A stretch of 64,000 nucleotides of DNA from Chryseobacterium sp. Marseille-Q5410 (GTDB lineage Bacteria > Bacteroidota > Bacteroidia > Flavobacteriales > Weeksellaceae), in the NCBI GenBank assembly GCA_946892665.1, contig CAMPOT010000001.1, positions 372,001-436,000 on the forward strand, read 5' to 3'. The translations under genes and the position numbers were made by a program. The notes under the pieces were generated by a model, which saw only the letters and a program-made list of their open reading frames with translations, made no database searches and was not told where the DNA came from. How positions within the stretch are numbered: position 1 is the first letter of the stretch; the number at the start of each line of letters is the position of its first letter. This document shows, piece by piece, positions 39,562 through 59,321 of this stretch.

Positions 39562-39635
39562 TCCTCTTTAGCTCAGTTGGTTAGAGCATCTGACTGTTAA
39601 TCAGAGGGTCGCTGGTTCGAGCCCAGCAAGAGGAG
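39562..39635 (+). tRNA. tRNA-Asn(GTT)
   Basis: A 74-nt cloverleaf with perfectly paired 7-bp acceptor arms (TCCTCTT with AAGAGGA) and discriminator G. D-arm GCTCAGTTGGTTAGAGC and T-arm with GGTTCGAGCC are canonical. The anticodon GTT is at 39596-39598 within the loop CTGTTAA. CCA is not encoded. Its 3' end marks the junction between core genome and accessory DNA, the usual integration point for tyrosine-recombinase elements. Confidence 0.98.
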
Positions 39636-39647
39636 CGCTGAAAATGA

Positions 39648-39759: not shown

Positions 39760-40695
39760 ATGACTGACTTCTATATCGCAACATATATTCTAATGGTAAC
39801 CTTTACAATCCTTGTCCCCTTCTATCTTGCAGGGCGGCTTTGGTTTGCGTTCAGTCCGTTTGCGATAAACTATTACTCCAAGGAAAGGGCAAACTGGTAT
39901 AACGACTGGAACACCCAGCGGTTTTTAATCGTTTTGAATTTATTTTTGGTTTCATTGTCGCTTTCCTTTTTCTGGGGCGGGAAAATACTGGAAGATATCC
40001 ATGCCGAGAAGATCGACTTTACCCAAATCCTATTCTATATCATTCTTCAAATTCTTGCCGTAATACTGTTCGAGGTAAAAATGGAACACCCATTTAAGCC
40101 AATTCAGGCATTCAAAAAATTCAAGAAAAACAGTTATAGCGAAAGGTTTGAGTTCCGAGAAAAGCAAGACGCGGCAGATAAAATAGAACACCATTCCAAT
40201 GAGTTAAAAAGAGAATTTTTGAAAGTTGGCACTAAGATTTCAAACGAATTAAATAATCAACAAATCATTTTATCTGAAACCAACGAACTCGCAAAACACA
40301 ACAATATTATCCTACAGGAATCCGATTTTGCTTTTGAAATAAAAAAGAATCCGAATATGGTCATTGATGACATTTTGCGGGATTATTTTATTTCTAAAGA
40401 TTCCGAGAGGGTTTTATCGGACTTTTTACTGCGGAAGAAAAACTCTGGAAAGATTCTGTTTACAAAGCCTGCAAGGAACGGCGTGAGCGTAAAGCCTATT
40501 TTGGACTTTTTCTCGACCTTTACTAATGTTATGGAAAGTTGTAAATCCGGCACAATAACCCAAGCCGAAACCTGCAAAATTATCAACGCCGTCACCTCGG
40601 CAAAAGACAGGCTCGGAAATATCGCAGAAGAGCCAATAAACAGCAGGAACCTCTCAAAATATCTTTCCAACAGCGATGTTCAGGATGATATATAG
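39760..40695 (+). CDS. Membrane protein of the integrated element, unknown function
   Basis: A 311-residue protein with three hydrophobic segments in the first 110 residues (IATYILMVTFTILVPFYLAG, FLIVLNLFLVSLSLSFFWGG, ILFYIILQILAVILFEVKM), then a mainly helical cytosolic region of 200 residues rich in Asn, Lys and Glu (KREFLKVGTKISNELNNQQI). No family recognised. It is the first gene inside the element after tRNA-Asn; a TAnnTTTG-type box (39726-39733) lies 27 bp upstream but has no clear -33 partner. A hairpin ends it. Confidence 0.6.
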   Translation: MTDFYIATYILMVTFTILVPFYLAGRLWFAFSPFAINYYSKERANWYNDWNTQRFLIVLNLFLVSLSLSFFWGGKILEDIHAEKIDFTQILFYIILQILAVILFEVKMEHPFKPIQAFKKFKKNSYSERFEFREKQDAADKIEHHSNELKREFLKVGTKISNELNNQQIILSETNELAKHNNIILQESDFAFEIKKNPNMVIDDILRDYFISKDSERVLSDFLLRKKNSGKILFTKPARNGVSVKPILDFFSTFTNVMESCKSGTITQAETCKIINAVTSAKDRLGNIAEEPINSRNLSKYLSNSDVQDDI

Positions 40696-40802: not shown

Positions 40803-40928
40803 ATCAAACAAAACCTCCTATTGAACGCACATTTCTTTAGGTTGTTTTATTTTACAAAAAACTTTTTAAGTCGCTTTTAGGCGGCTATTTCTTTGGGAAA
40901 TATCTTGGCCTCAACAAAATTCAACGAA

Positions 40929-41270
40929 ATGAAAGACCAAGAAAGACTAGCTGCGCTAGAAAGCCAAATGTCCACCTTGGTAAACTCGCAAAAAGAGTTT
41001 ACCTCCAAGGCGCTACAGATGCTCGCCCTCGGAACCAAGAAGATCTATTCCAAGGAAGAGGCCGCGCTGTTCCTCAACCTGGATCCGGACTATCTCTACC
41101 AACTCAAACACCACGGCAAACTGAAGGCCTACAAAAAGAAGGGGCAAAAGAAAATCTACTTTCGCAAAGAGGACCTCGAAGCTTATCTTCTGGGGGATAA
41201 TGTGGAGGAAATACAAAATGATGACTATGACGCATTCGAGCAGGAAATTCTGGAGCGATGGAAGAAATAA
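40929..41270 (+). CDS. Helix-turn-helix (excisionase/MerR-like) DNA-binding protein
   Basis: A 113-residue protein. The N-terminal 40 residues are a coiled-coil-like helix (QERLAALESQMSTLVNSQKE). Residues 50-90 are an HTH_17-type domain (IYSKEEAALFLNLDPDYLYQ followed by LKAYKKKGQKKIYFRKEDLE), typical of excisionases and of small replication-control proteins in Bacteroidota elements. The ATG at 40929 is preferred over an upstream TTG. The next gene starts inside its last 13 bp, so the two are translationally coupled. GC content is clearly higher than in the neighbouring genes. Confidence 0.75.
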   Translation: MKDQERLAALESQMSTLVNSQKEFTSKALQMLALGTKKIYSKEEAALFLNLDPDYLYQLKHHGKLKAYKKKGQKKIYFRKEDLEAYLLGDNVEEIQNDDYDAFEQEILERWKK

Positions 41271-42445
41271 CCAACAAGCCGGCTGAGGAGCAAAAAATCC
41301 CTGTTCTGTACCAAACCGATTCCGAGACCACTACCATTTTCGATATGGTGATGAAGTATCTTGAAAGCAAGTATGACCTTCGCTTTAACGCCATCGCCCT
41401 GGAGATAGAAATATCGCTCAAGGGAAAGGATGACTGGACAGAGCTAAACATCAACTCCCTGCTGATAGAACTCGTACAGGCCGGGATGCAGATCACCATG
41501 CAGAAGTTGGAGATCCTCGTACGGAGCCACTTGATAAAGAGATACAACCCGATAGCGGAATACTTTAAAAAACTCGCGGGCTGGGACGGCGAAGACCATA
41601 TCCGGAAGCTGGCGGGATTTGTTCGGACCAACGACAGCGAAGCGTTCCGCTACCATCTCGAGAAGTGGCTGACCCGCGCCGTGCTTTGCGCATTGAAGAA
41701 AGACTATGTCAACAAGCAGTGCTTCGTGCTGGCAAGCTTCAAACAGAACACGGGCAAGACCACTTTCCTGCGGTTCCTCATCCCGGACGGGCTCAGGGAT
41801 TATTATTCCGAAAATGTCACAGTGGACAAGGACGGCATCATTGCCATCTGCAAAAACTTTATCCTCAATGCGGACGAGCTGGCCGTGCTGTCCAAATCGG
41901 ATGTCAACACGCTGAAATCCTTTATCTCGATGGGCGGCGCAAAGGTGAGGGTGCCTTACGGGAGAAAGCCGGAGAACATGGACAGGATCTGTTCCTTTGT
42001 TGCCTCCACCAACAGAACAGATTTCCTTACCGACGAGACAGGAAGCGTAAGGTGGCTGGTTTTCGAAGTTTTAAGCATTGACTTCAATTATTCCAAGGAA
42101 ATAGACATAGACAAGGTATGGGCGCAGGCGTACCACAATGCTTTTGAAAGAAAAAATTACCAACCGGAAATGACGCTCTCGGACATAGAGGCCAACGAGC
42201 TGAGGAACGAGCAGTTTTCCCAGCTTTCAGTTGAGCAGGAAATCGTTTCCGCACACTTCGAGAAATCGAAGGACATCAAGGATTTTCTTACGGCGACGGA
42301 CATCGTTGTGGCAATGAACAACGCCCTGAATTTAAGATTGAACAACATCAAGGTCGGAAAGGCGCTCACCAGGCTCAAGTATGAAAGAATCAAGCATCCG
42401 AAACTCCAGGTTTACGGCTACCTGATCCGAAGAAAGATTGACTGA
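41258..42445 (+). CDS. VirE-domain P-loop ATPase (element replication protein)
   Basis: A 395-residue protein of the VirE/VapE-like ATPase family, found in mobile elements together with primases. A Walker A-like SFKQNTGKTTFLRFL lies near residue 160; later come ILNADELAVLSK (Walker B-type region) and ICSFVASTNRTDFLTDETG with the sensor residues. It is probably a helicase-type initiator of element replication. It overlaps the HTH gene by 13 bp. It shares that gene's high GC, unlike the primase downstream, which suggests a mosaic module. Confidence 0.78.
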   Translation: MEEITNKPAEEQKIPVLYQTDSETTTIFDMVMKYLESKYDLRFNAIALEIEISLKGKDDWTELNINSLLIELVQAGMQITMQKLEILVRSHLIKRYNPIAEYFKKLAGWDGEDHIRKLAGFVRTNDSEAFRYHLEKWLTRAVLCALKKDYVNKQCFVLASFKQNTGKTTFLRFLIPDGLRDYYSENVTVDKDGIIAICKNFILNADELAVLSKSDVNTLKSFISMGGAKVRVPYGRKPENMDRICSFVASTNRTDFLTDETGSVRWLVFEVLSIDFNYSKEIDIDKVWAQAYHNAFERKNYQPEMTLSDIEANELRNEQFSQLSVEQEIVSAHFEKSKDIKDFLTATDIVVAMNNALNLRLNNIKVGKALTRLKYERIKHPKLQVYGYLIRRKID

Positions 42446-42718: not shown

Positions 42719-43642
42719 ATGAACTGCAAACAAGCGAACGAGAATATCAGCATCAAAGAAGTAATGGAAAGTTTTTCTCTATTCCCAAGCAAAGAACATC
42801 CGAAAACAGCCTATTATTATGCTATCAATCGACAAGAACGAACGCCAAGTTTATTAGTGAATTATGTGAAAAATATTGCCTTTGATTTTGGCACTGGAAA
42901 ACAATACGATGTCGTGTCGATAGTTCAGGAGCTCAAACAATGCACTGTATCCGATGCTCTTGAATATCTTGAAAAGTTTGATTTTTCTTTTCAAAAGCAA
43001 AAGGGAAATTTAAACAATCCAAAAGAAGAAACTAAATCTTATCAAATATTAGAAGTAAAAGAAGTGTCACATCCAGCGTTGATTGAATATTTAAAATATA
43101 GAAAACTCGAATCTCAAAAATCTGAACTTCAGGAAATTCATTACGAAATGAATGGGAAGAATTATTTCGGATTAGGATTCAAAAACGATTCGGGAGGCTA
43201 CGAGATCCGCAGCAGGTTTTCCAAAATCTGTCTTGGAAAAAAGGATATCACCACGATAAAAAATAATTCTGAAAACCTCAAGGTTTTCGAGGGCTTTACC
43301 GACTACCTTTCCTTTAAAATTTTAGCACAAGAAAAGACACCCTCCGACTATCTAATTCTGAACTCAGTCGCCATGGTTCACAAGGTATCAGGGATTTTTG
43401 GAAATTATAAATCTGTCGAAATGTACCTGAATAACGACCGCGCCGGCGAACAGTGCAGGGATTCGATTTTGAAAATTTTCCCGAAGGCAGATGACCGATC
43501 GAGCGAATATTTCCCCCATCAAGATCTGAATGATTTCCTGATATCACAAGAAGAAAAGACTCTTGAAAATAAGCTTGAAAAAAATCAAACAGCCATACAC
43601 GAGCCCGAGGGAAACAGGAATATTTACAGGAGAAAAAGATGA
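42719..43642 (+). CDS. Toprim-domain primase of the element
   Basis: A 307-residue primase-like protein. The N-terminal 100 residues follow the CHC2 zinc-finger layout of bacterial primases (RQERTPSLLVNYVKNIAFDF followed by GTGKQYDVVSIVQELKQCTV) but without the Cys/His ligands, so no zinc site is visible. The Toprim domain has LKVFEGFTDYLSFK near residue 183 with the acidic Glu, and EMYLNNDRAGEQCRD near 237 with the DxD-like acidic region. It probably makes primers during conjugal or autonomous replication. Lower GC than the ATPase gene upstream. Confidence 0.78.
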   Translation: MNCKQANENISIKEVMESFSLFPSKEHPKTAYYYAINRQERTPSLLVNYVKNIAFDFGTGKQYDVVSIVQELKQCTVSDALEYLEKFDFSFQKQKGNLNNPKEETKSYQILEVKEVSHPALIEYLKYRKLESQKSELQEIHYEMNGKNYFGLGFKNDSGGYEIRSRFSKICLGKKDITTIKNNSENLKVFEGFTDYLSFKILAQEKTPSDYLILNSVAMVHKVSGIFGNYKSVEMYLNNDRAGEQCRDSILKIFPKADDRSSEYFPHQDLNDFLISQEEKTLENKLEKNQTAIHEPEGNRNIYRRKR

Positions 43643-43879
43643 AGATTCATACAAGCCGGCCTGCGCAAAATAAGCACAGGTGGAATGCTCTAAAAAGGCT
43701 GGGTAAAAACTTGCCATGTGTCTAGTGCAAAAAGTACCCAATGTTTACAACAAGCGTGGGGCTTGTCGTAAAAATCGGGCTTTTTGGTTTCCTCCTGTCG
43801 TCGGAAACACTTGTTTGGAAATGGAATTCAAGCCCATTATTTAAAATCATAAAAAAATTAAACACAAAATAAACACAAG
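43643..43879 (+). other. Candidate oriT upstream of the mobilization genes
   Basis: This 237-bp stretch precedes the mobC-like and relaxase genes, the usual place of oriT in mobilizable Bacteroidota elements. It holds ACAAGC/GCTTGT with a 5-nt loop (43750-43766) and TTTCC/GGAAA with a 10-nt spacer (43788-43807), plus G/C-rich words between them. A 28-codon frame (43639-43725) starts with an ATGA overlap at the primase stop but has no other support as a gene. oriT function is inferred. Confidence 0.35.
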
Positions 43880-44356
43880 ATGAAAAATGACTTTTTAAAA
43901 CAGTTTGTCAGGCAGATTTCCGAGCAGCAAATTGCAAAGGTTGCAGAAGAAAAAAGAAAGAACCGCTTTCGCGAAATTGGTCGAAAGGGAGGTTTGAAAA
44001 AGAAGACGGCGAACCAATTTTCGAAGGTAGTCTCAGTTCGTTTTACCGAAAAGGAGTTTGAGAAAATTCAAAAGGAGGCTGACTTCTACAAACTCAAAAT
44101 ATCAAAATATTTAAGACTGGTTTCAACCGAAAAAGAACTCAAAATAAACGAGTTTCAAACCGACGCGGTTCTGTTGAATTACGGCAACAATTTTATAAGG
44201 ATATCCAATCTGCTCCGGAACAGAGAATGGAATGAGTTTGAAAACAAGAAAGAGATCCTTGAGGAAATTCAAACCACAACGAGGTTGATCCGGGAATACC
44301 TCTACCAACAAATCATCAAGCATGAACAATTCGGCAACGACGAGGAGGATCAGTAA
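43880..44356 (+). CDS. MobC-like mobilization accessory protein
   Basis: A 158-residue basic protein of the bacterial mobilization (MobC) type. The N-terminal 60 residues are highly charged (KVAEEKRKNRFREIGRKGGL), followed by a ribbon-helix-helix-like stretch (VVSVRFTEKEFEKIQKEADF) near residues 49-68 and a helical C-terminal part (LNYGNNFIRISNLLRNREWN). MobC proteins nick-prime the relaxosome by opening oriT. The relaxase gene starts 35 bp before its stop, so the two overlap and are translationally coupled. Confidence 0.8.
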   Translation: MKNDFLKQFVRQISEQQIAKVAEEKRKNRFREIGRKGGLKKKTANQFSKVVSVRFTEKEFEKIQKEADFYKLKISKYLRLVSTEKELKINEFQTDAVLLNYGNNFIRISNLLRNREWNEFENKKEILEEIQTTTRLIREYLYQQIIKHEQFGNDEEDQ

Positions 44357-45230
44357 GATTGCGATTGAATACAATGGCAATGACAAAGGCACGGCGGAAT
44401 GTATTTATTCCAACAACCTGCTTTCAACAATGCCGGAGGAAAGATTTGAAGAGATGAAGATTGTCGCCGAGAGAAATCCGAATGTAAAGAAATGGGCTCT
44501 CACAGGTTACATTTCTCCGGCAAAGGAAATTGGAGACATACTGACCAACGACGAATTGAAGGAACTGGCTATAAAATCATTGAAAGACGTGGGACTTACA
44601 GAAAATAACCAGGTCGTCCTGGATGTCCACAATTCCACGAAGTAGAAACATATCCATTTCATCGTGAACCGCATAGATGTTTATGGTAAATGCACGGTAA
44701 AATCTGCCAATATCGGGAAACGCTTTGGTGTCTCAGTGAGAAATGTTTGCAAAGAGATGAACCTGAAAACAGATGTGGAAATAGGGAAAGAGAAAAAGCA
44801 GCAGATGCTGAAAGTTCTGCAAAACTGTCTGAAGGTCTCAAGAAATTTTGATGACTTGGTGGATTATATGCGGAGATGTGGTTACAGAGTGACGCTCTCG
44901 CAGAATGTGAAGGACGGTATTTCGGGGATGCGGATTGTTAGATTAAAGGACATCAACGACCAAACCCAGAGGCAGTACCATCCAGGTTACAAACTTTCGG
45001 AGATCACCAGCAAACTGAAGATTAAGGACATCAAAGAAATCCTAAACCGGAATGCGGAAAACCACCAGTCGGCAATTTTCAGTCAGAGTAATCCGCAAAC
45101 GAATGAAATAAAACATCCGGAAAAATCAGCCCTCAAGGAGATTGAGAATGCTGTGAAGGAACTCCTCAAACCGAGCTACGCACCGGCGGCAGACGATGAA
45201 TTGCTGAGGAAAAGAAAAAGAAGGCGATAA
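44322..45230 (+). pseudogene. MobB/MobA-type relaxase interrupted by an amber stop
   Basis: One frame of 303 codons encodes a relaxase/mobilization nuclease (PF03432-like) that should nick oriT and lead DNA into the recipient. An in-frame TAG at 44643-44645 cuts it after residue 107. The text before the stop ends DVHNSTK and after it continues KHIHFIVNRIDVYGK, so the stop falls inside the His-x-His metal motif itself. The downstream half (IGKRFGVSVRNVCKEMNLKT onward) is otherwise intact and in the same frame. Overlap with mobC and coherent codon use show the gene was recently functional. Confidence 0.85.
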
Positions 45231-45259: not shown

Positions 45260-45844
45260 ATGAACAACAACGAATTTAACAACCAAGAGAATACAGAAAA
45301 TTATTCTTCACAAGATGCAGGCATCGAACTTTTGCACCGCGTCATAGAAAGCAATAAGGCGGTAGAAATTTCGGGGAAGGCGATTTTCCACATGTATTGC
45401 GACATCAAGGAGGATGTAAAGAAAATCCAAGCACTGGCACATGAAGAAAATCTAAAACGGCAGGAATTGCTTAAATCCATCCCCAACAATATTATCGCAG
45501 AATTATCTCCGGACGTTATAAAGCATCTGGAAAAATTCCATCAGAAATCAGATACAGTTAAATATTGGTTTTTCGGAATCCTGGCTCTATTGCTGGTTGC
45601 ATTTTTTATTTTAACAGCAACTGTTTATCTAGGAAAAATCTGGTACCGCGAAAGCATCCGCACCAAGACCGAGGTTCGAGAGGAAATCCTCAAGGAGATC
45701 AAGGATGAAAACAAGGCGATTTATGAAACAGAGCAAGTAAAACAGCTGGAGCACAATACCGCACTAATGAAAAAATGGATGAAGAAAAATCCTAAAGACG
45801 CAGAAAAGTTCTTGAAGTTTAAGGAGGGGTATGAGAGTAGGTAG
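45260..45844 (+). CDS. Element-encoded protein with one membrane helix
   Basis: A 194-residue protein. Residues 1-105 are hydrophilic and largely helical, with LLHRVIESNKAVEISGKAIF and QALAHEENLKRQELLKSIPN. One transmembrane helix (WFFGILALLLVAFFILTATV) is near residues 108-130. The C-terminal 60 residues are a charged coiled coil (EVREEILKEIKDENKAIYET). Similar proteins accompany relaxase genes in Bacteroidota mobilizable elements and may help recruit the relaxosome to a coupling protein; that is inference. It starts 30 bp after the relaxase gene. Confidence 0.65.
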   Translation: MNNNEFNNQENTENYSSQDAGIELLHRVIESNKAVEISGKAIFHMYCDIKEDVKKIQALAHEENLKRQELLKSIPNNIIAELSPDVIKHLEKFHQKSDTVKYWFFGILALLLVAFFILTATVYLGKIWYRESIRTKTEVREEILKEIKDENKAIYETEQVKQLEHNTALMKKWMKKNPKDAEKFLKFKEGYESR

Positions 45845-45855
45845 ACTAAAAATTA

Positions 45856-45887
45856 TTTGTCCATTCTAAAATAATTCCCTATCTTTG
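45856..45887 (+). promoter_or_regulatory. Promoter of the Cys-rich cargo gene
   Basis: TTTG (45856-45859), 20 bp, and TATCTTTG (45880-45887) match the Bacteroidota -33/-7 consensus exactly. The ATG of the first metal-cargo gene lies 16 bp downstream, so the leader is very short. Confidence 0.75.
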
Positions 45888-46544: not shown

Positions 46545-46931
46545 ATGAAGAATATTCTTTTGGGAATACTGGCTTTTGCATCGGTATTTCTCGTTTCCTG
46601 CAACAATTCAAAAGCCGAAAATACACAAATCGCGGTCGCAAAGTTCACCACGGGCGATATTGTTCCGCACGATCAGGTATGTATGGTAAACAACGCCTAT
46701 ATGGGTAAAAAACAACTCGAAGTACAGTACGACGGTAAAACCTACTACGGTTGCTGCGAAAACTGCAAACTCAGAATCCCGCAGGAAGAAAATGCGCGGA
46801 TGGCATACGATCCGATTTCTCACCAACTTATCGATAAAGCAACCGCAATTATAGCGATATCCGATAAAAACGACAATGTCGTGTACTTCGAAAACAAAGC
46901 AAACTACGAAGCCTTTTTCAATAAAAAATAA
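46545..46931 (+). CDS. Lipoprotein with TRASH/YHS-like metal-binding motif
   Basis: A 128-residue lipoprotein (lipobox LVSC, residues 16-19). The core reads HDQVCMVNNAYMGKKQLEVQ and YYGCCENCKLRIPQEE, which resembles a TRASH/YHS-type cysteine site (Cys, then Cys-Cys-x2-Cys) used in copper and heavy-metal sensing or trafficking. First gene of the efflux operon; with the DUF3347 lipoprotein 23 bp downstream it likely delivers periplasmic metal to the pump. Exact family not certain. Confidence 0.75.
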   Translation: MKNILLGILAFASVFLVSCNNSKAENTQIAVAKFTTGDIVPHDQVCMVNNAYMGKKQLEVQYDGKTYYGCCENCKLRIPQEENARMAYDPISHQLIDKATAIIAISDKNDNVVYFENKANYEAFFNKK

Positions 46932-46954
46932 ATAAACTTTAAACTTATAAAATA

Positions 46955-47578
46955 ATGAAAACAGTACTATTCAGCCTTTTGGCAGTCGGAACATTTGCAC
47001 TTACTTCCTGCAAAGAAAACAAAGAACAGAAAAGCACCACTGAAACTTCCATGAAGCACGATATGAGCACAATGTCCGATAGTGCAGCGATGGGCAATAT
47101 GGCAACGGATAAAGAGATAACCGTTACTGAAGCCAAAAAGTCTTCCGCTGATCTTACGGAGCTTTATTCCCATTACACCCACCTTACATTCGCTTTGTCC
47201 GGTGATGATGATAAAGAAGCGGTTAGTGCAGCGAAAGGGATCCTGGCCTCTTTTCCTAAAATAGACAAAAATGGGTTTTCCGATGAACAGAAGAAAGAAT
47301 TTGCAGAACTGGAAGCCAGCATCCGGGAACACGCCGAGCACATTGCAGATAATGCCGGAAACATTGATCATCAGCGCGAACACCTGGACATAATGAGTGC
47401 AGATTTTTACGACCTTTTGAAAGATTTCGGAACTCCAAAACCGGTGTATAAAGTATTCTGCCCGATGTATAATGACAAAAAAGGAGCCTTCTGGCTCAGC
47501 GATTCACGCGAGATCAAGAACCCTTATTACGGCAAAAAAATGGCTTCATGTGGCGAGGTTCAGGAAGAAATTAAGTAA
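46955..47578 (+). CDS. DUF3347-family metal-binding lipoprotein
   Basis: A 207-residue lipoprotein (lipobox LTSC, residues 16-19) with a Met/His/Asp/Ser-rich linker (MKHDMSTMSDSAAMGNMATD) suited to copper. A helical DUF3347-type domain spans about residues 55-150 (LTELYSHYTHLTFALSGDDD). The C-terminus VFCPMYNDKKGAFWLSD ... NPYYGKKMASCGEV holds Cys and Met residues that probably bind metal. In Bacteroidota such domains are found alone or fused to CusB. The RND pump gene starts 14 bp after its stop. Confidence 0.85.
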   Translation: MKTVLFSLLAVGTFALTSCKENKEQKSTTETSMKHDMSTMSDSAAMGNMATDKEITVTEAKKSSADLTELYSHYTHLTFALSGDDDKEAVSAAKGILASFPKIDKNGFSDEQKKEFAELEASIREHAEHIADNAGNIDHQREHLDIMSADFYDLLKDFGTPKPVYKVFCPMYNDKKGAFWLSDSREIKNPYYGKKMASCGEVQEEIK

Positions 47579-47592
47579 AACCGTACAGAACC

Positions 47593-48876
47593 ATGATTCA
47601 AAATTTAATCAAACTGTCCCTCCGCAACAGGTATTTCGTTTTGCTGATTGCAATCGGCCTTTTTATCTGGGGTATTTTTGCGGTAAGGGACAATCCCATC
47701 GATGCCATTCCGGATCTGAGTGAGAACCAGGTCATCGTTTTTACGGAGTGGATGGGCAGAAGTCCCCAGATTATTGAAGATCAGGTGACTTTCCCGCTGG
47801 TCAGCAACCTACAGGGAATTCCGAAAATTAAGAACATCCGCGCCTCTTCCATGTTTGGGATGAGCTTCGTATATGTTATTTTCGAAGATAATGTGGATAT
47901 TTATTGGGCCAGAACCCGCGTAATGGAACGGCTCAATTATGCGCAGCGATTACTCCCGCAGGATGTTACCCCTACGCTCGGACCCGATGGCACCGGTGTA
48001 GGTCACGTCTTCTGGTATCATTTCGATGCACCCAAAATGGATTTGGGAGACCAGCGTGCCCTTCAGGACTGGTATGTAAAGTTTGCGCTTCAGACGGTTC
48101 CCGGCGTGGCGGAAGTAGCCTCCTTTGGCGGCTTCGAAAAACAGTACCAACTCATTGTAGATCCTGTAAAACTGCAGTACTATAACGTCTCTCTGATGGA
48201 TGTCATGAACAAAGTCAAAGCCAACAATAATGATGTGGGCGGACGTAAATTTGAGATGGCTGATATGGCATACATCATTCGCGGACTGGGGTACATAAAG
48301 AACGTAGCCGATATCGAGGAAATTGCTTTGGGAAATTACAACGGTATTCCTGTGCGTGTGAAAGATATTGGCTCTGTACAGATGGGTGGTGATCTCCGCC
48401 TGGGTATTTTCGACGCGGATGGGGAAGGAGAAGTGGTAGGCGGTATCGTGGTGGCGCGGTATGGCGAAAATGCGGATAAGGTCATCAACGATGTGAAAGA
48501 GAAAATGAAGGACGTGGAAAAAGGTCTCCCCGAAGGCGTTACCTTCAAAACATCTTACGACCGCAGTACGCTGATTGAAGGGGCAATAGACAATATCAAA
48601 ACCAAGCTGATCGAAGAGATCATCGTGGTCGCTATCATTGTGATTCTGTTCCTGTTCCACTGGCGAAGTGCATTCAGTATCATTATTCAGATTCCGGTCA
48701 CCATTGCCATCAGCTTTATTCTGCTCAATGCGTTCGGACTTTCATCAAATATTATGTCGCTTACCGGAATTGCACTGGCAATCGGGGTGATTGTAGATAA
48801 CGGAATTATCATGTCTGAAAATGCGTATAAAAATCTCTCCGATTGGCAGAACCATCAACAAAATAAAAACCCATAA
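47593..48876 (+). CDS. CusA-type RND efflux pump, N-terminal half-protein
   Basis: A 427-residue protein covering transmembrane helices 1-4 and the first periplasmic porter domains of a heavy-metal RND transporter. It begins LRNRYFVLLIAIGLFIWGIF and ends in TM4, ALAIGVIVDNGIIMSENAYK. The TM4 motif keeps the second acidic residue and the Glu but has Ala where divalent-metal pumps (CzcA) have the first Asp, a CusA-like pattern that points to Cu(I)/Ag(I). The protein stops in the cytosolic linker before TM5; the rest is encoded by the next gene, 2 bp later in another frame. Confidence 0.85.
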   Translation: MIQNLIKLSLRNRYFVLLIAIGLFIWGIFAVRDNPIDAIPDLSENQVIVFTEWMGRSPQIIEDQVTFPLVSNLQGIPKIKNIRASSMFGMSFVYVIFEDNVDIYWARTRVMERLNYAQRLLPQDVTPTLGPDGTGVGHVFWYHFDAPKMDLGDQRALQDWYVKFALQTVPGVAEVASFGGFEKQYQLIVDPVKLQYYNVSLMDVMNKVKANNNDVGGRKFEMADMAYIIRGLGYIKNVADIEEIALGNYNGIPVRVKDIGSVQMGGDLRLGIFDADGEGEVVGGIVVARYGENADKVINDVKEKMKDVEKGLPEGVTFKTSYDRSTLIEGAIDNIKTKLIEEIIVVAIIVILFLFHWRSAFSIIIQIPVTIAISFILLNAFGLSSNIMSLTGIALAIGVIVDNGIIMSENAYKNLSDWQNHQQNKNP

Positions 48877-48878
48877 CA

Positions 48879-50837
48879 ATGAAAACCAACTGGTTTAAAA
48901 ATATATTCAGAAAGAAAGATAAGGAGAAAGACAGTTACGTTAAAATTCCCGAAGATATTCGGATGAAGATTATCGAAAAATCATCCTTACAGGTATCCAG
49001 AGGGGTCTTTTTCTCTACGGTGATTATCGTGGTTTCCTTTCTCCCCGTATTTATGTTGACAGGTCAGGAAGGTAAACTTTTTCACCCGTTGGCGTACACC
49101 AAAACTTTTATCCTGATCGTTGATGCGATCTTGGTACTTACCCTTGCGCCGGTACTTATCTCCTTTTTTATGAAGGGAAAGTTTAAAGACGATAAGAAAA
49201 ACCCAATAAATCGGGGCTTGGAACGGGTTTACGAACCCATCATTCGCTGGTGCATGGAATGGAAAAAAACAACGCTTGGCATTAATATTCTTGCCCTTCT
49301 TATCAGCATCCCTTTAATTATGAACCTCGGCCGTGAGTTTATGCCGCCCTTAGATGAAGGCTCACTACTCTTTATGCCGGTCACTTTGCCTGATATTTCG
49401 AACTCTGAAGCCAAAAGATTACTTCAGGTGCAGGATAAAATCATTAAAGGAGTTCCGGAAGTGGATCATGTCCTCGGAAAAGCCGGAAGAGCAAACACGG
49501 CGACAGATAATTCACCCATTTCAATGATTGAAACCATCATTCTGTTGAAACCTCAGGACGAATGGCGCGACGGCCTTACAAAAGACGATCTTATTAATGA
49601 ATTGAATGCCAAACTGCAGATTCCCGGCGTAACCAATGGCTGGACCATGCCGATTTCCAACCGGATCAATATGCTTTCAACAGGGATTAGAACGGATGTG
49701 GGCGTAAAAGTGTACGGACAGAACCTGGACAGTATCGCGGTCCTTTCCGAAAAAATAAAAAAGGAACTCACCGGTATTGAAGGAATCAAGGATATGTACG
49801 TAGAACCCATTACCGGCGGAAAATATGTGGATATTGAAGTGAAACGCGAAGAAATAGGAAGATACGGCCTAAGTGTGGATGATGTAAATGCCGTCGTGGA
49901 AAGTGCGCTCGGCGGAATGAAACTCACCACCACAGTGGAAGGCCGACAGCGCTTTTCGGTAAATGCCAGATACGGCCAGGATTTCAGAAATAATTTGGAA
50001 TCTCTGAGAAGATTGCCCATGCAGACGATGGAATTTGGTTCCATTCCGCTAAGTGCAGTAGCCGACATCCGTCTTACAGAAGGACCACCAATGATCAATT
50101 CTGAAAATGCAATGTTGCGTGGAACTGTTCTATTCAACGTACGCGACCGGGATTTAGGCAGTACCGTAAAAGAAGCCCAGGCAAAACTCAATAACATGGT
50201 GAACAAAATGCCAAAAGGTTATTTCGTGGAATGGAGCGGTCAGTACGAAAACCTGATTCGGGGCGAGCAGACTTTAAAAATGATTATGCCCCTCGTATTA
50301 ATAGTGATTTTCCTTTCGATGTATTTTGCGTTCAATTCTTACCGCGAAGCTTTCTTTAATCTCATCAGTATTCCTTTTGCCCTAATCGGGGGTGTCTTTA
50401 TGATTTCGATTTGGGGGGTGAACCTTTCCGTAGCCGTAGCAGTTGGTTTTATTGCGTTGTTCGGACTTGCGGTAGAAACCGGAATCGTGATGGTTATCTA
50501 CCTGAACGATGCCATGATTCAGCTTACCACGAAGAATGGCAACTCCCGGGAGACCATTAGCAATGAAGAACTTCGTGAATATGTCATCCATGGTGCAGCA
50601 AAAAGATTAAGACCGAAGATTATGACGGTTTGTGTGACCCTCTTCGGCCTAGTCCCCATCCTGTGGAGCCACGGTGTGGGAAGTGATATGATGAAACCCA
50701 TTGTATTACCGATGGTCGGTGGCGTTTTCACTTCGGCCATTCACATTCTTTTGGTAACGCCTATTATCTTTTATATGCAGAAGGAATGGGAACTGAACAA
50801 GTTGGGTAAAATTGACGTGCTCGACGCTTCCCATTAA
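48879..50837 (+). CDS. CusA-type RND efflux pump, C-terminal half-protein
   Basis: A 652-residue protein that begins with a basic linker (KTNWFKNIFRKKDKEKDSYV) and continues with TM5 (QVSRGVFFSTVIIVVSFLPV), the second porter domain with Met-rich stretches (NGWTMPISNRINMLSTGIRT), and TM7-12 ending in the RND motif GVGSDMMKPIVLPMVGGVFT. With the upstream half it totals 1,079 residues, the normal CusA length. Its frame has a stop codon at 48864-48866, just before its ATG, so it cannot come from a simple frameshift of the upstream gene. Separate translation is the simplest reading. Confidence 0.87.
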   Translation: MKTNWFKNIFRKKDKEKDSYVKIPEDIRMKIIEKSSLQVSRGVFFSTVIIVVSFLPVFMLTGQEGKLFHPLAYTKTFILIVDAILVLTLAPVLISFFMKGKFKDDKKNPINRGLERVYEPIIRWCMEWKKTTLGINILALLISIPLIMNLGREFMPPLDEGSLLFMPVTLPDISNSEAKRLLQVQDKIIKGVPEVDHVLGKAGRANTATDNSPISMIETIILLKPQDEWRDGLTKDDLINELNAKLQIPGVTNGWTMPISNRINMLSTGIRTDVGVKVYGQNLDSIAVLSEKIKKELTGIEGIKDMYVEPITGGKYVDIEVKREEIGRYGLSVDDVNAVVESALGGMKLTTTVEGRQRFSVNARYGQDFRNNLESLRRLPMQTMEFGSIPLSAVADIRLTEGPPMINSENAMLRGTVLFNVRDRDLGSTVKEAQAKLNNMVNKMPKGYFVEWSGQYENLIRGEQTLKMIMPLVLIVIFLSMYFAFNSYREAFFNLISIPFALIGGVFMISIWGVNLSVAVAVGFIALFGLAVETGIVMVIYLNDAMIQLTTKNGNSRETISNEELREYVIHGAAKRLRPKIMTVCVTLFGLVPILWSHGVGSDMMKPIVLPMVGGVFTSAIHILLVTPIIFYMQKEWELNKLGKIDVLDASH

Positions 50838-50855
50838 TACTTAAATGATTACAAA

Positions 50856-52103
50856 ATGAAAAAATTAATAATAACAGGAGCACTGGCCTTGCTTTACACC
50901 AATATTGATGCTCAGCGGATGCCGTTGCCCGCTGTAATGGACAGTATCGCAGCCAACCATCCGGTGGTTAAAATGTATAATGCGGAAGTCCGGTCAATGG
51001 ACGCTGCGGCCAAAGGCGCAAGAAGCTGGATGCCCCCAACCGTTGGAGCCGGGTTGTTTATGACGCCCTATAATCCAAAACTCTGGCAGCGCGACGGCGA
51101 TATGCTCGGCATGGGCTCAGTAGCAGTTTCGGTGGAACAGATGTTTCCTAACAGAAAGAAACTCAACGCCAACGAAAATCTGATGAAGGCAATGTCGGCT
51201 GTAGAAAAGGAAAAACTTTATGCCGCCCTCAATGAAAACTTTCAGGATGCAAAAAAACTGTATTACAGTTCAATCGTCTTGGATAAAAAGCTGAAGGTCG
51301 TTAAGGAAAACGAAAAGATGCTGGATTTCATGATCAGAAACGCCGAGATCCGGTACAAAAACGGACTTTCCAAAATATCCGCCTATTACAAAGCCAAAGC
51401 GGCCCTCGGAAGTTCAAAAAACATGCAGCTCATGTATGAGAATGACCTGCGCGTCAACCGCATCCGGTTGAATGCCCTCATGGGAAGAGACGCCCTGTCA
51501 CCGCTGGAAATCCTGCCTGAGTACAACTTGAACGATTATTCCCTGGAGACCTTTGGTCAGGATCTTTTTGAGCAGAACAGAAGTGACTTGCGTAGCATCG
51601 ACCGGGAAATTAATATTGCCAAACTCAAACAGGATCTGGAAAAGCAGAATCTAAAGCCGGAATTTGGCGTAAAGTTCGAAAACATGTTTGGTTTTGGTGG
51701 CCAGCCCATGCAGTTTTCTCTGATGCTGATGGCAAAACTGCCTTTCGTATCCTGGGCTTCAGGCATGAATAAAGCCAATATTGAAAGCCTGAAACTGAAA
51801 GAAGAGGCCTTGCAGGCGCAGAAAGAAATGATGGTGAACGAATACAGTGGAATGGCCTACGGAATGCGCAATGAACTGGACCTGAATAAAAATCAGCTGA
51901 AACTCTATGAAGACACCATTATTCCGGCCTTAAAAAACAACTACAAATCCATGCAGTTGGGCTATGAGCAGAATACGGAAGAACTCTTCATGTTATATGA
52001 CGCATGGGAACAGCTGAATATGGCCCAACTGGAATATTTCGAGATCCTTACCAAAGCACTGCAGACGCAAACTGAAATTGACCGCTTAATTGAAAGAAGA
52101 TGA
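50856..52103 (+). CDS. TolC-family outer-membrane channel (CusC-like)
   Basis: A 415-residue protein with signal peptide (KKLIITGALALLYTNIDAQ). Two OEP/TolC-type helical-hairpin repeats are visible: VVKMYNAEVRSMDAAAKGAR and later GLSKISAYYKAKAALGSSKN, with a second set near LYEDTIIPALKNNYKSMQLG. It would span the outer membrane and dock on the RND pump for direct export of metal. It lies 18 bp after the pump and overlaps the next gene start by 4 bp (ATGA). Confidence 0.88.
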   Translation: MKKLIITGALALLYTNIDAQRMPLPAVMDSIAANHPVVKMYNAEVRSMDAAAKGARSWMPPTVGAGLFMTPYNPKLWQRDGDMLGMGSVAVSVEQMFPNRKKLNANENLMKAMSAVEKEKLYAALNENFQDAKKLYYSSIVLDKKLKVVKENEKMLDFMIRNAEIRYKNGLSKISAYYKAKAALGSSKNMQLMYENDLRVNRIRLNALMGRDALSPLEILPEYNLNDYSLETFGQDLFEQNRSDLRSIDREINIAKLKQDLEKQNLKPEFGVKFENMFGFGGQPMQFSLMLMAKLPFVSWASGMNKANIESLKLKEEALQAQKEMMVNEYSGMAYGMRNELDLNKNQLKLYEDTIIPALKNNYKSMQLGYEQNTEELFMLYDAWEQLNMAQLEYFEILTKALQTQTEIDRLIERR

Positions 52104-53350
52104 GAAAAATTATAATATTCACTATGCTTTTATTTGGTTTGACGGCGTGTGACAAAGTTAAGTTCTGGGAAGATAAGCACTCGGCAGAAGATGCAATGCA
52201 TACTTATACCTGTCCGATGCACCCGGAAGTGATTTCAGACAAACCCGGCAAATGTCCCAAATGTGGGATGGATTTGGTCCTGAAAGATGCCCCTGAAAAA
52301 AAGGAAGAGGGGATTAAACTCGACGATCTGTTGAAACCAACCAATGAATTTGTAGTGTCGGAACAGCCCGTAATAAAAGTAAAAAGAGAAAACATACCCA
52401 CCACGGTTGATGCTTTAGGGACGGTAGAATACGATACTCGACAGATTGGCAGTATTTCCTCGCGCGTTGCGGGCCGTATCGAGAAACTCTATGTGCGGTA
52501 TAAATACCAGAAAGTGTCGAAAGGGCAGCGTATTTTAGATATATACAGCCCGGAACTTTTAACCGCACAGCAAAACCTGCTCTTCGTTATTAAAAATGAC
52601 CGCTCAAACAAAACGATGATCGATGCTTCACGCCAGAAACTCCTTCTTTTGGGAATGCCGGCTTCACAGATTCAGAAAGTCATCCAGCGAGGGAAACCTG
52701 ATCTCACAATTCCGGTTTTCAGCAATTACAGCGGACACATTCAGCAGGCAGGATCGGCCGGAAGCATGGGGTCATCACCACAATCTGCACCCGCAATGGC
52801 TTCAAATACGGCAGTCACCGCTGAACTACCCCTAAAAGAGGGAATGTACCTCCAGAAAGGACAGAATATTTTCAGTGTCTACAATCCCAACAGAACCTGG
52901 GCCCAGATCAATATTTTTTCTGAAGACATTGCACTGGTCAGCAAAGGACAGTCAGTCATGATCATCCCGGAAGCCAATCCTGAAAATCGCTTCAAAGGAA
53001 CCATCGGTTTTATTGAACCGTTTTTCAGGCAGGGCAGCAAAACCGTAACGGCGCGCGTCTATTTTGATAATTCCACCGCAAAAATTCCTGTCGGAAGTCA
53101 GGTTAAAGCGGAGATTATGAGCCACAACAGAATGGCAGACTGGCTGCCGAAATCAGCGGTGGTTTCTTTAGGGATTGATAAAATCGCGTTCAAAAAAGTA
53201 GAAGGCGGTTTTATTGCCCATAAAGTTGTTACCGGCGCGGTGGTAGGCGATAAAATTCAGATCGTCAGTGGTTTGCTTCCTGAAGATGGAGTTGCCGAAA
53301 ATGCACAGTACCTGATGGACAGCGAAAGTTTCATAAAAATTAACAGATAA
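52100..53350 (+). CDS. CusB-like membrane-fusion protein with MHPxV metal-binding domain
   Basis: A 416-residue lipoprotein (lipobox LTAC, residues 14-17). Residues 33-57 hold a heavy-metal-binding domain, YTCPMHPEVISDKPGKCPKC then GMDLV. A CusB-type adaptor follows: barrel-sandwich halves SRVAGRIEKLYVRYKYQKVS and LKEGMYLQKGQNIFSVYN flanking a helical hairpin, then a beta barrel. Between them is a Ser/Met/Pro-rich insert (GSAGSMGSSPQSAPAMASNT). It links the inner-membrane pump to the channel. A second, related adaptor follows 11 bp later. Confidence 0.9.
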   Translation: MRKIIIFTMLLFGLTACDKVKFWEDKHSAEDAMHTYTCPMHPEVISDKPGKCPKCGMDLVLKDAPEKKEEGIKLDDLLKPTNEFVVSEQPVIKVKRENIPTTVDALGTVEYDTRQIGSISSRVAGRIEKLYVRYKYQKVSKGQRILDIYSPELLTAQQNLLFVIKNDRSNKTMIDASRQKLLLLGMPASQIQKVIQRGKPDLTIPVFSNYSGHIQQAGSAGSMGSSPQSAPAMASNTAVTAELPLKEGMYLQKGQNIFSVYNPNRTWAQINIFSEDIALVSKGQSVMIIPEANPENRFKGTIGFIEPFFRQGSKTVTARVYFDNSTAKIPVGSQVKAEIMSHNRMADWLPKSAVVSLGIDKIAFKKVEGGFIAHKVVTGAVVGDKIQIVSGLLPEDGVAENAQYLMDSESFIKINR

Positions 53351-53361
53351 AAATTGATAAG

Positions 53362-54567
53362 ATGAAATTCAATATTTTAATGCTTGCCTTGCTGGTTTTT
53401 CTTTACTCCTGTAAAAAGGAGGAAGATCCGCATGCCGGCCACGATATCTACTACACCTGTTCCATGCACCCGCAGGTAGTCTCCGATAAACCCGGAAAAT
53501 GCCCCATTTGTCACATGGATTTGGTGCCTGTGGAGAAGAAAAAGAATGCGGATCCTAACGAAATTGTTTTGAATGACGAGCAGGTTAAACTTGGGAATAT
53601 CAAAACAGTCGCGCTCTCTGACGGTTCCATGGCTGATAAGCTCACGCTTACCGGAACACTTAATTTTAACCAGTACCAAATGCAGGCAGTAAGTTCCAGA
53701 GTAATGGGCAGAGTTGAACGGTTGTATTATAAAAACATTGGCGATTTTGTTCCGAAGGGGGCGCCGTTGGTCGATATTTACAGTGAAGAACTCAATAATG
53801 CAAAGCAGGAATATTTGCTGGCGCTTGAAAGACGCAAGCTGTTCGTCGGTAATACTTCCATTGATTTTGATCAGTTGCTCCAAAGTTCCCGCAACAAGCT
53901 TTATTTATGGGGAATGTCCGAAGGCCAGATCAAACAGCTGGAAAGATCAGGAAAAGCCACGCCAACCACTACCGTGTTCAGCAATGCAGCCGGTTACATC
54001 ACCGATCTGAGCATTGCCGAAGGCGATTATCTTGCCGAAGGTGGCACCATCGTGAATCTGGCAGATCTTTCATCGCTTTGGGCAGAGGCGCAGGTCTATT
54101 CGTCCCAAATGGCTCTCCTTCAGAAAGACAGCAAGGTCACCGTATATATTCCCGATCTGGATAATCTGAAGATTAATGGGAAGGTTGATTTTACAAACCC
54201 GGAAATAAGCGCCTCCAGCAGGATAAATCTGGTTCGCATTTCCGTGCCCAACAAAGGAAATCTGCTGAAACCCGGCATGCCGGTATATGTTCTGGTGGAA
54301 AACAAATCCCGTGATGGTCTTTCAATGCCTGTGGATGCGGTAATCAGGGATGGCAAATCTTCCACGGTGTGGGTGAAAACCGCGAAGAACACCTTCGTCA
54401 ACAGAATGGTGGAAACGGGTCTCGAATATGAAGACAGAATAGAAATCACATCAGGAATTAAGGCGGGAGACGAAGTAGTGGTCTCCGGGGCCTACCTTCT
54501 GAACAGCGAATATATATTTAAGAAAGGGGCAGATCCCATGGCGGGTCACGATATGAGCACCATGTAA
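53362..54567 (+). CDS. Second CusB-like membrane-fusion protein with MHPxV domain
   Basis: A 401-residue lipoprotein (lipobox LYSC, residues 14-17). Residues 29-55 contain YTCSMHPQVVSDKPGKCPIC followed by HMDLVPV, the same metal-binding domain as in the previous protein. The adaptor core (SRVMGRVERLYYKNIGDFVP, GDYLAEGGTIVNLADLSSLW, VDFTNPEISASSRINLVRI) is complete. Two adaptors in one operon suggest a hetero-assembly or metal-specific exchange of adaptors. The C-terminus is Met/His-rich (MAGHDMSTM). It ends 1 bp before the next start. Confidence 0.9.
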   Translation: MKFNILMLALLVFLYSCKKEEDPHAGHDIYYTCSMHPQVVSDKPGKCPICHMDLVPVEKKKNADPNEIVLNDEQVKLGNIKTVALSDGSMADKLTLTGTLNFNQYQMQAVSSRVMGRVERLYYKNIGDFVPKGAPLVDIYSEELNNAKQEYLLALERRKLFVGNTSIDFDQLLQSSRNKLYLWGMSEGQIKQLERSGKATPTTTVFSNAAGYITDLSIAEGDYLAEGGTIVNLADLSSLWAEAQVYSSQMALLQKDSKVTVYIPDLDNLKINGKVDFTNPEISASSRINLVRISVPNKGNLLKPGMPVYVLVENKSRDGLSMPVDAVIRDGKSSTVWVKTAKNTFVNRMVETGLEYEDRIEITSGIKAGDEVVVSGAYLLNSEYIFKKGADPMAGHDMSTM

Positions 54568-54568
54568 T

Positions 54569-55030
54569 ATGAGAAAATTGAATATGATAGGCTGGCTGGC
54601 GGTGATAGTAGTGGCGGTTGTTTTAGCCATTCAGGTCATACCGGTGGAGCGTAATGTCTCCACCGTTCCGCCAGGTCAAAGTTTTCAAAAAACCGAAAAG
54701 GTGCCCGCCAACGTGGCTGCAATCCTTAAAGTTTCCTGCTATGACTGTCATTCAAATAATACCCGTTATCCCTGGTATTCGGAATTACAGCCGGGCGCGT
54801 GGTTCATGGCCCGGCATATTAAAAAAGGGAAAGAAGAACTCAACTTTGATGAGTTCGATGACTATTCAAAAAGACGAAAAAAAGCAAAAATAAAAAGCAT
54901 CATCAGCCAGATTGAAAAAGATGAAATGCCGCTTCCATCGTACCTTTGGATGCATCACGATGCAGGATTATCTCCAGCTGGAAAAGAACAGCTTCTAAAA
55001 TTTTTCCGCGCCTATGAGTATTATAAATAA
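54569..55030 (+). CDS. Haem-binding-domain protein (CxxCH)
   Basis: A 153-residue protein anchored by an N-terminal helix (IGWLAVIVVAVVLAIQVIPV). KVSCYDCHSNNTRYPWYSEL near residue 55 is the CxxCH haem-attachment site of the Haem_bd domain, followed by the helical rest with LPSYLWMHHDAGLSPAGKEQ. It starts 1 bp after the second adaptor stop and ends the efflux operon. It may oxidise Cu(I) or report redox state, a role inferred from its position only. Confidence 0.85.
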   Translation: MRKLNMIGWLAVIVVAVVLAIQVIPVERNVSTVPPGQSFQKTEKVPANVAAILKVSCYDCHSNNTRYPWYSELQPGAWFMARHIKKGKEELNFDEFDDYSKRRKKAKIKSIISQIEKDEMPLPSYLWMHHDAGLSPAGKEQLLKFFRAYEYYK

Positions 55031-56979: not shown

Positions 56980-58070
56980 ACGAAAAAATTTTTTACCCCG
57001 ACATTGGTTGTCATAATGACAATGCTATTTGGTATGGTCAGCAGTTGCGGCAATAACGATAATAGCAATACCAATAGTAGTAAAACTGACAAACCACCTT
57101 CATTGCCATCGGCTAAAGGATATGTTGCCAACGAAGCCGGAGGCAGTGTTTCAGTTATAGATCTTCAGGATAGCTTAAAAACCACAAGCATTGACTTCAG
57201 TGATAGCGCCGGAACTATGTTTATGGCCCATAATGTGCAGGTGGCCCCCAATGGAAAATCTGTTTGGGTGGCGGGAGCAGGTATGGACAGCAGTAAAACA
57301 AATTACTTAATAGTTATTGACCCAAACAGCGGTACAATAAAAGAGCGTGTGCTGTTAGGTAAAGATCTACACGTGGCCCATGTGGTTTTAGACGATCAAT
57401 CAAAGAATGCATTTGTAACCGCAGGTGAAACGAATGAAGTCATACAAGTAGATGCAACGACCTATCAAGTGGTACGGAAGTTTGATTTAGGTGCAAAACA
57501 TGCACCACATGGTTTGCGCTACGCTAATGGCAAATTGTATGTAGCCAATATGGACGGAAAAAGCATGTCTGTCATTACTGTAGCTGATGGCAAAGTAACT
57601 GATATTCCTCTTGGCGGAATAGCTCCACAGGTGGCAGTTACCCGTGATGATAAATTTATTTTCATCTCTTTATACGACACAAAAGAGGTGATACAGTATG
57701 ACCTTAAAAATGGTCAACTAAACAGAATACCATTACCTGCTACTGCTCAAGGTCCAATTCAGTTGTATGCTACCCCTGATAGTAAGTTACTGTATGTGGC
57801 TGACCAAGGAGAGTTACTCGGAAGACCGGTTTCAAACGAGATTTATGTAATAGACATACCAAACGCAAAAGTGATAAGTACCATTAAAGTTGGTAAGAAG
57901 GCTCACGGTGTAGTAGTAAGCAACGATGGTAAATCAGTTTTTGTAACAAATACTATAGATAATACCGTTTCTGTGATGATGTGGCAAGTCAAAAAGTGAT
58001 CCACACAATCCCGGTTGGCAAAGGCCCTAATGGAATAAGCTATTGGTTTGAAACTGGTGGAATGCCATAA
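56980..58070 (+). pseudogene. YncE-type beta-propeller lipoprotein, decayed start and frameshift
   Basis: A YVTN-type propeller (repeat units such as YVANEAGGSVSVIDLQDSLK, KLYVANMDGKSMSVITVADG) of about 363 residues if intact. A lipoprotein signal KKFFTPTLVVIMTMLFGMVS followed by SC can be read from ACG at 56980, where ATG would be expected; the longest frame now starts at a TTG (57004) inside the signal. Near 57977 one base is missing: the current frame ends MWQVKK, while the next frame continues DVASQKVIHTIPVGKGPNGI to SYWFETGGMP and TAA at 58070. Two lesions suggest real decay, not one sequencing error. Confidence 0.8.
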
Positions 58071-58137
58071 ACAGAATATTAAAGGAAATACACATCGGAA
58101 ACCTTTTAATTTAATCGATAAGCTAAATATATATATT

Positions 58138-59169: not shown

Positions 59170-59321
59170 GAGTAAGCAAAAAGTAAATTATCAAATTAAT
59201 AAAACGGAATGTTAAGGAAAATGGTTTTGTACCCTGCAAATATTTGTAAGACGCGCACTTCCGCAAATGCCTATTTCTAAAATATATAGAAATTTAGGGA
59301 TTAAATTAAAGTTTAAAAAAA

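What the first reader, a model, noticed from the sequence alone, without database searches (positions are those of the whole stretch)
44322..45230. Relaxase broken by an amber codon exactly inside its catalytic His-x-His motif
Two frames that look like separate ORFs (107 and 188 codons) are in the same frame, separated only by TAG at 44643-44645. The text reads HNSTK-stop-KHIHFIVNRI. This is either a point mutation that immobilised the element, or a sense-recoded or suppressed stop that controls relaxase dose. The rest of the gene and the mobC overlap are intact, so the lesion is young.
Basis: partly seen in the sequence, partly recalled or inferred. Interest (0 to 1): 0.6.

Follow-up and report, generated by a model that had tools for sequence, protein, structure and literature searches.

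The report
Metal-resistance island with broken relaxase
A transferable metal-resistance island in a bacterium has lost its DNA-nicking (relaxase) gene to what looks like an ordinary stop mutation, yet keeps a start site for transfer much like those of two intact islands in the same cell, so it might still be moved by them.

Summary
TAG at 44643-44645 is codon 108 of a 302-codon MobA/VirD2-type relaxase gene. It lies between H103 and the H110-x-H112 pair, not inside H-x-H. A regulated or recoded stop is not supported: 58 of 58 other distinct homologue sequences have a sense codon there, none of the 38 tRNA genes found has a CUA anticodon, and TAG ends neighbouring genes. The nearest copies differ by 14 bases of 909, one in this codon. 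A sister island in another genus (G110) has its own TAG at codon 182, so loss recurs at different places.

The gene belongs to a 41-kb metal-resistance island between repeats of the tRNA-Asn 3' end, with an open integrase gene. 'Immobilised' is too strong. A 26-bp oriT-like core occurs three times in this genome, before each of three related relaxase genes; the other two are open, and a CTnDOT-like conjugative element is present. Rescue in trans is plausible but untested: hairpins differ and accessory proteins are 48-57% identical. A sequencing error at this base cannot be excluded.

The parts
44322..45230 (+). relaxase gene (PF03432), 302 codons with the internal stop counted; interrupted
44643..44645 (+). 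in-frame TAG, codon 108, between H103 and H110-x-H112
43880..44356 (+). mobC-like accessory protein (NikA-like, PF21983), open, overlaps the relaxase start by 35 bp
43725..43750 (+). 26-bp oriT-like core, found at 3 places in the genome (up to 3 mismatches allowed), each upstream of a relaxase gene of this family
43750..43766 (+). predicted hairpin directly after the core (43750-43755 with 43761-43766)
42719..43642 (+). primase-like gene (Toprim_2; CHC2 zinc finger below cut-off) of the island backbone
41258..42445 (+). VapE-like gene of the island backbone
40893..41270 (+). HTH_17 gene of the island backbone (excisionase-like by inference only)
39760..40695 (+). conserved 311-codon ORF without Pfam or NCBIfam match, first gene of the island
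39562..39636 (+). tRNA-Asn(gtt); its last 45 bp (39592-39636) are the left attachment repeat; the right copy (98%) is at G000:C1:452550-452594, outside the window
45260..45844 (+). conserved 194-codon ORF after the relaxase, no Pfam or NCBIfam match; ends in TAG
46545..55030 (+). metal-resistance cargo: CusA/CzcA-type RND pump in two ORFs, a 415-codon ORF, two HlyD/CusB-type proteins, haem-binding protein; more cargo and the tyrosine integrase (L082:15118-16329, - strand) lie beyond the window

Best explanation
A single-base nonsense mutation has recently inactivated the relaxase of a 41-kb metal-resistance island integrated at tRNA-Asn in a Kaistella-group bacterium. Shown: the stop, the sense codon in the homologues examined, open neighbouring backbone genes, att repeats, an open integrase gene. 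Inferred: the 107-residue product lacks H110 and H112, so it cannot form the three-His metal site, and the 188-codon remainder lacks the motif, so the island makes no working relaxase of its own. Inferred, less sure: the island can still excise, and because its oriT-like site shares a 26-bp core with two co-resident islands whose relaxase genes are open, it may still be nicked in trans and sent through the type IV secretion system of the co-resident CTnDOT-like element. It would then have gone from an oriT-plus-relaxase hitchhiker to an oriT-only one.
For: Stop real and in frame. 58 of 58 other distinct homologue sequences have a sense codon there; all 11 close loci compared differ by one base in that codon. 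Siblings L032/L033 differ elsewhere by 10 synonymous and 2 nonsynonymous codons, so the lesion is young. Against 14 other distinct genes of the same island type only codons 108 and 137 are unique to the window. G110 has an independent TAG at codon 182 and a more distant G003 copy a TAA: with this one, 3 of 118 copies (E up to 1e-60) in 71 of 320 genomes have an internal stop. Island limits: att repeats, integrase. Island 93-97% alike against 67-79% in the adjoining chromosome at 7 of 8 places. Shared core at 3 genome sites, reversed-pattern control 0; the other two relaxases open, 318 and 313 codons from stop to stop; helper with TraG, J, K, M, N, MobB and MobC. G024's sister island carries a short oriT patch of another island type.
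Against: No reads were available, so an error at the base is possible. For rescue in trans: over 64 bp the oriT-like site is 78% and 81% identical to the two co-resident ones, the hairpin differs, and the accessory proteins are 48% and 57% identical. In the staphylococcal pWBG749 family the accessory protein sets oriT specificity (PMC8136818, abstract). nic was not mapped; no excision or transfer was observed.
Confidence: 0.85

Rival explanations
1. Sequencing or assembly error: the true genome has a sense codon and the relaxase is intact.
For: One base differs from the closest relatives; codon 137, also window-unique, has two changed bases close by; no reads to check.
Against: The neighbouring backbone ORFs have the same length as in relatives, within 2 codons for the primase-like one in L033. 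The genome is listed as 99.94% complete with 0.17% contamination in 5 contigs. Nonsense copies exist elsewhere in the family.
Confidence: 0.1
2. Regulated or suppressed stop: read-through of TAG sets the relaxase dose.
For: The frame after the stop is open to its normal end, and most differences from the sibling are synonymous.
Against: Column 108 is sense in 58 of 58 other distinct sequences; the other TAG-broken sister is broken at codon 182; no CUA anticodon among the 38 tRNA genes found (the search scored 150 of 211 candidates); TAG ends 7 of 62 long ORFs, two of them on this island's backbone; the two window-unique codons both change the product. The open frame is equally expected for a young lesion.
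Confidence: 0.02
3. The two fragments are made separately and assemble into a working enzyme.
For: Both fragments are ORFs, of 107 and 188 codons.
Against: The split runs through the metal-binding motif; the downstream ORF starts at GTG 44664, after H110 and H112, so neither product carries those residues.
Confidence: 0.01

Closest known systems
Integrative mobilizable elements with (iMOB) and without (iOriT) a relaxase, and the reductive model of hitcher origin (PMC11389934: passages, and section 24 part 1 of 2)
   Same: Integrated element with integrase and oriT-like site whose relaxase gene is lost by an inactivating mutation, possible helpers in the same cell; the review names shared oriT motifs as one way to find compatible pairs
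   Different: Here the relaxase gene is still almost whole; mobility is not shown
Bacteroides IMEs such as NBU1 and Tn4399, with MobP relaxases helped by CTnDOT-type elements (PMC5704250: passages only)
   Same: NBU1: tyrosine integrase, 3' end of a tRNA gene, MobP relaxase; a CTnDOT-like element is present here too
   Different: 41 kb with metal cargo, tRNA-Asn, VapE/primase backbone, relaxase broken
MbpA/MbpB mobilization proteins (NCBIfam NF041418, NF041420)
   Same: Best NCBIfam matches of the accessory protein and of the intact sibling relaxase
   Different: Both far below the curated cut-offs (24.4 against 90; 60.7 against 400 bits)
Staphylococcal pWBG749 oriT mimics (PMC8136818: abstract and outline only)
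   Same: Elements using another element's transfer proteins through a similar oriT
   Different: Plasmids with another accessory protein; shown by experiment there, not here

Membership tests
PF03432 relaxase with H-x-H motif | profile match over the cut-off | tested here: met
   76.4 bits across the stop, cut-off 24.6; N part alone 40.1
PF03432 relaxase with H-x-H motif | three-His motif in one polypeptide | tested here: not met
   H103 lies before and H110/H112 after the stop
NCBIfam MbpB (NF041420) | score over the curated cut-off | tested here: not met
   intact sibling 60.7 against 400 bits
Integrative and mobilizable element | integrase and flanking attachment repeats | tested here: met
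   403-aa tyrosine integrase; 45-bp repeat, 98%
Integrative and mobilizable element | oriT | tested here: inconclusive
   conserved block upstream of the relaxase in 71 of 73 loci; the other two hold only about 600 and 430 bases upstream; short hairpin predicted; nic not mapped
Integrative and mobilizable element | own working relaxase | tested here: not met
   TAG at codon 108
Integrative and mobilizable element | no conjugation apparatus of its own, possible helper available | tested here: met
   tested with TraG only: the single match in the genome lies about 0.57 Mb from the island, among other tra genes
oriT-only hitcher (iOriT) | transfer by a relaxase acting in trans | not testable with these tools
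   needs nicking or mating assays
Programmed read-through gene | stop conserved among homologues | tested here: not met
   0 of 58 other distinct sequences
Programmed read-through gene | decoding tRNA | tested here: not met
   no CUA anticodon among the 38 tRNA genes found

The most novel reading that the evidence does not exclude
This family of metal-resistance islands repeatedly loses its own relaxase and persists by sharing oriT with other islands in the same cell, so that co-resident islands form a relaxase-sharing community and short oriT patches are exchanged between them.
Probability: 0.25. Interest if true: 0.55.

Novelty: new member of a known kind. Interest (0 to 1): 0.3.

Why it matters
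It replaces a possible recoding story with a plain explanation. It also gives a natural test case for the proposed step from relaxase-bearing to oriT-only hitchhiker: one broken and two open relaxase genes with a shared oriT core, and a conjugative element, in one genome. That matters for predicting whether 'broken' resistance islands can still spread.

Tried and rejected
Recoding or suppression: rejected. The pattern scan for CTA anticodons was uninformative by itself: 62 matches against 146 for the reversed control. The tRNA family search (38 matches, 150 of 211 candidates scored) with ARAGORN on every one of the 38 places settled it as far as it goes.

A conserved stop: the TAG in G110 first looked like a second case of the same codon; it is codon 182.

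Rescue shown by association: all three genomes with a broken copy (G000, G003, G110) hold another open one, but by my hand count, 76 of 118 copies lie in genomes with two or more, so this has about a one-in-four chance and proves nothing.

Split cusA as decay: rejected, the same 427+652 split is in the four relatives looked at, L033, L035, L037 and L041.

Other carriers of the allele: no match in viral contigs to a pattern with the codon left open, none in plasmids by blastn; tblastn of the C part in plasmids gave 5 records, all below 60% identity. No other strain of the same species was available.

Literature (search listings only, unless said elsewhere). No title or abstract listed concerns this island; the Kaistella search returned nothing. 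Searches listed 20 of 40 and 20 of 51 papers. Only the held open-licence library was searched.

Full report
OBSERVATION. Pfam Relaxase PF03432 continues across the break: profile 1-89 before it, 93-132 after it, 76.4 bits when scored across it. The alignment of the intact sibling L033 with eight relatives places invariant histidines at 103, 110 and 112. The stop is therefore inside the three-His motif but two codons before H-x-H. A stop could fall almost anywhere: 114 of 302 codons of the intact sibling are one substitution from a stop, 3 of them in H103-H112.

WHOSE GENE. The window is part of a 2.69-Mb genome in 5 contigs. One genus mate has the same contig numbers and coordinates as Kaistella haifensis DSM 19056 contigs 32 and 54, so I take the genus to be Kaistella or what GTDB groups with it; the species is unknown. 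The relaxase lies in an island that starts at tRNA-Asn 39562-39636. A 45-bp repeat of the tRNA 3' end, 98% identical, is at G000:C1:452550-452594, 41 kb to the right and beyond the window, with a 403-aa tyrosine integrase just inside it. The backbone is a 311-codon ORF, HTH_17, VapE-like, primase-like, NikA-like accessory protein, relaxase and a 194-codon ORF. The cargo includes metal efflux pumps, P-type ATPases and a multicopper oxidase.

THE ISLAND FAMILY. Among copies of the same island type, the tRNA-Asn core lies to the left of the island at 8 distinct places (L087, L033/L172, L032/L174, L034/L176, L040, L170, L171, L173; slashes mark one place fetched twice). Three further places whose stretch reaches that far (L039, L035, L037) do not show it, so not all copies sit at this tRNA or keep this end. 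At 7 of the 8 places the island backbone is 93-97% identical to the window while the matched part of the adjoining chromosome is 67-79%; at the eighth, L040, the flank is 93%, a close relative without contrast. This is what horizontal transfer of the island would give.

THE LESION IS YOUNG AND PRIVATE. The first searches gave 73 loci, with some copies fetched twice from two collections; they hold 59 distinct aligned gene sequences, some of them partial. In all 58 others the column is a sense codon, one base from TAG in 18 and two in 40. All 11 close loci compared differ by one base there. L032 and L033, identical to each other, differ from the window elsewhere by 10 synonymous and 2 nonsynonymous codons. 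Against 14 other distinct genes of this island type, only two codons are unique to the window, 108 and 137. Codon 137 has two changed bases and gives V where 58 other sequences have E 40, K 15, A 2, D 1. That fits relaxed constraint after the stop, or a local sequence error, but two codons are too few to tell. Difference counts jump along the gene (for L008, 0-4 per 60 nt in the first 300 nt and up to 13 later), so the gene looks like a recombination mosaic.

NOT A REGULATED STOP. The tRNA family search found 38 tRNA genes (150 of 211 candidates scored); ARAGORN read an anticodon at each of these places and none is CUA. TAG ends 7 of 62 non-overlapping ORFs of at least 150 codons in the window and the adjoining 20 kb, among them the ORFs at 39760 and 45260 on this island. 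In 320 genomes of the family, 71 hold a match at E up to 1e-60; by hand count there are 118 copies, and 3 have an internal stop: this one (TAG), G110 (TAG) and G003 (TAA). G110 lies in another genus. Its gene is 95% identical to the query L033, its island sits beside the same tRNA core, and its oriT-like site is the same as the window's over the first 72 bases, but its TAG is codon 182. Inactivation has thus happened separately. Of the 19 copies with at least 94% identity to the query, 2 are broken. That search scored at most 7 candidates a genome, so copy numbers are lower bounds. Other backbone genes are broken in sisters too: the 311-codon ORF in L040 and VapE in L035.

IS THE ISLAND IMMOBILE? 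Upstream of mobC is a block conserved in 71 of 73 loci; the other two hold only about 600 and 430 bases upstream of the gene. It has a 26-bp core and a short hairpin whose sequence varies; in a few members, among them one co-resident copy, the predicted stem is weak. In this genome the core occurs at three places with up to 3 mismatches allowed, each time without mismatch, and the reversed control gives none. The other two sites precede relaxase genes that are open. The genome also has a CTnDOT-like element: MobB, MobC, TraG, J, K, M and N score over their NCBIfam cut-offs. The parts that rescue in trans would need are therefore in the cell.

FOR AND AGAINST RESCUE IN TRANS. For: the sister island in G024, 98% identical in the C-terminal relaxase part, carries about 63-73 bp of oriT sequence matching that of the co-resident island p84 (L084) of the window's genome, inside window-type DNA; a few single sites further right also agree with p84. 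In 44 of 1540 pairs of distinct copies the oriT block is at least 95% identical while the relaxases are below 70%; these pairs are not independent events. Against: over 64 bp the window's block is 78% and 81% identical to the two co-resident ones, and the accessory proteins are 48% and 57% identical. In a staphylococcal system the accessory protein decides oriT specificity (PMC8136818, abstract). I put rescue in trans near 0.4 (my estimate).

KNOWN KIND. The review PMC11389934 (passages and section 24 part 1 of 2 read) describes integrated elements with a relaxase and oriT (iMOB) or oriT only (iOriT), proposes a model in which hitchers arise by gene loss or inactivating mutations, and holds that many such proto-hitchers are lost. 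PMC5704250 (passages read) lists Bacteroides elements with tRNA integration, MobP relaxases and CTnDOT-type helpers. This island fits that frame, so I file it as a new member of a known kind with a broken defining gene. By NCBIfam it is not MbpB: the intact sibling scores 60.7 bits against a cut-off of 400.

LIMITS. No reads, no other strain of the species, one genome per species. The oriT, excision and transfer are inferred from sequence. Names such as MOBP and CTnDOT-like rest partly on recall and on the two reviews.

Noticed in passing
L086 (G024), oriT core at 1327-1352 of the reverse strand: A patch of about 63-73 bp at the oriT-like site matches another island type while both flanks are window-type, as if the oriT alone had been exchanged.
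   Followed up: partly
47593-48876 and 48879-50837: A CusA/CzcA-type pump is encoded as two ORFs in different frames (427 and 652 codons); the same split is in four relatives looked at, so it looks like a fixed two-piece form rather than decay.
   Followed up: partly
L082:5556-9884 (beyond the window): A 1442-codon ORF joins an RND pump (ACR_tran) to an outer-membrane efflux domain (OEP).
   Followed up: no
58048-60383: A GAPDH-like and a DeoC/LacD-type aldolase gene sit side by side on the island among metal-resistance cargo.
   Followed up: no
G110:C1:1020909-1021814 (in L170); L030 (G003): Two further relaxase copies of this family with their own internal stops, TAG at codon 182 and a TAA.
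   Followed up: partly
after 45844-45864: The junction behind the 194-codon ORF holds extra DNA in relatives, about 1.1 kb in L032 and 0.4 kb in L170 (G110), possibly an insertion hot spot between backbone and cargo.
   Followed up: no
L039, L035, L037: Three copies of the island type whose stretch reaches the left end lack the exact tRNA-Asn core there; they may sit at another site.
   Followed up: no
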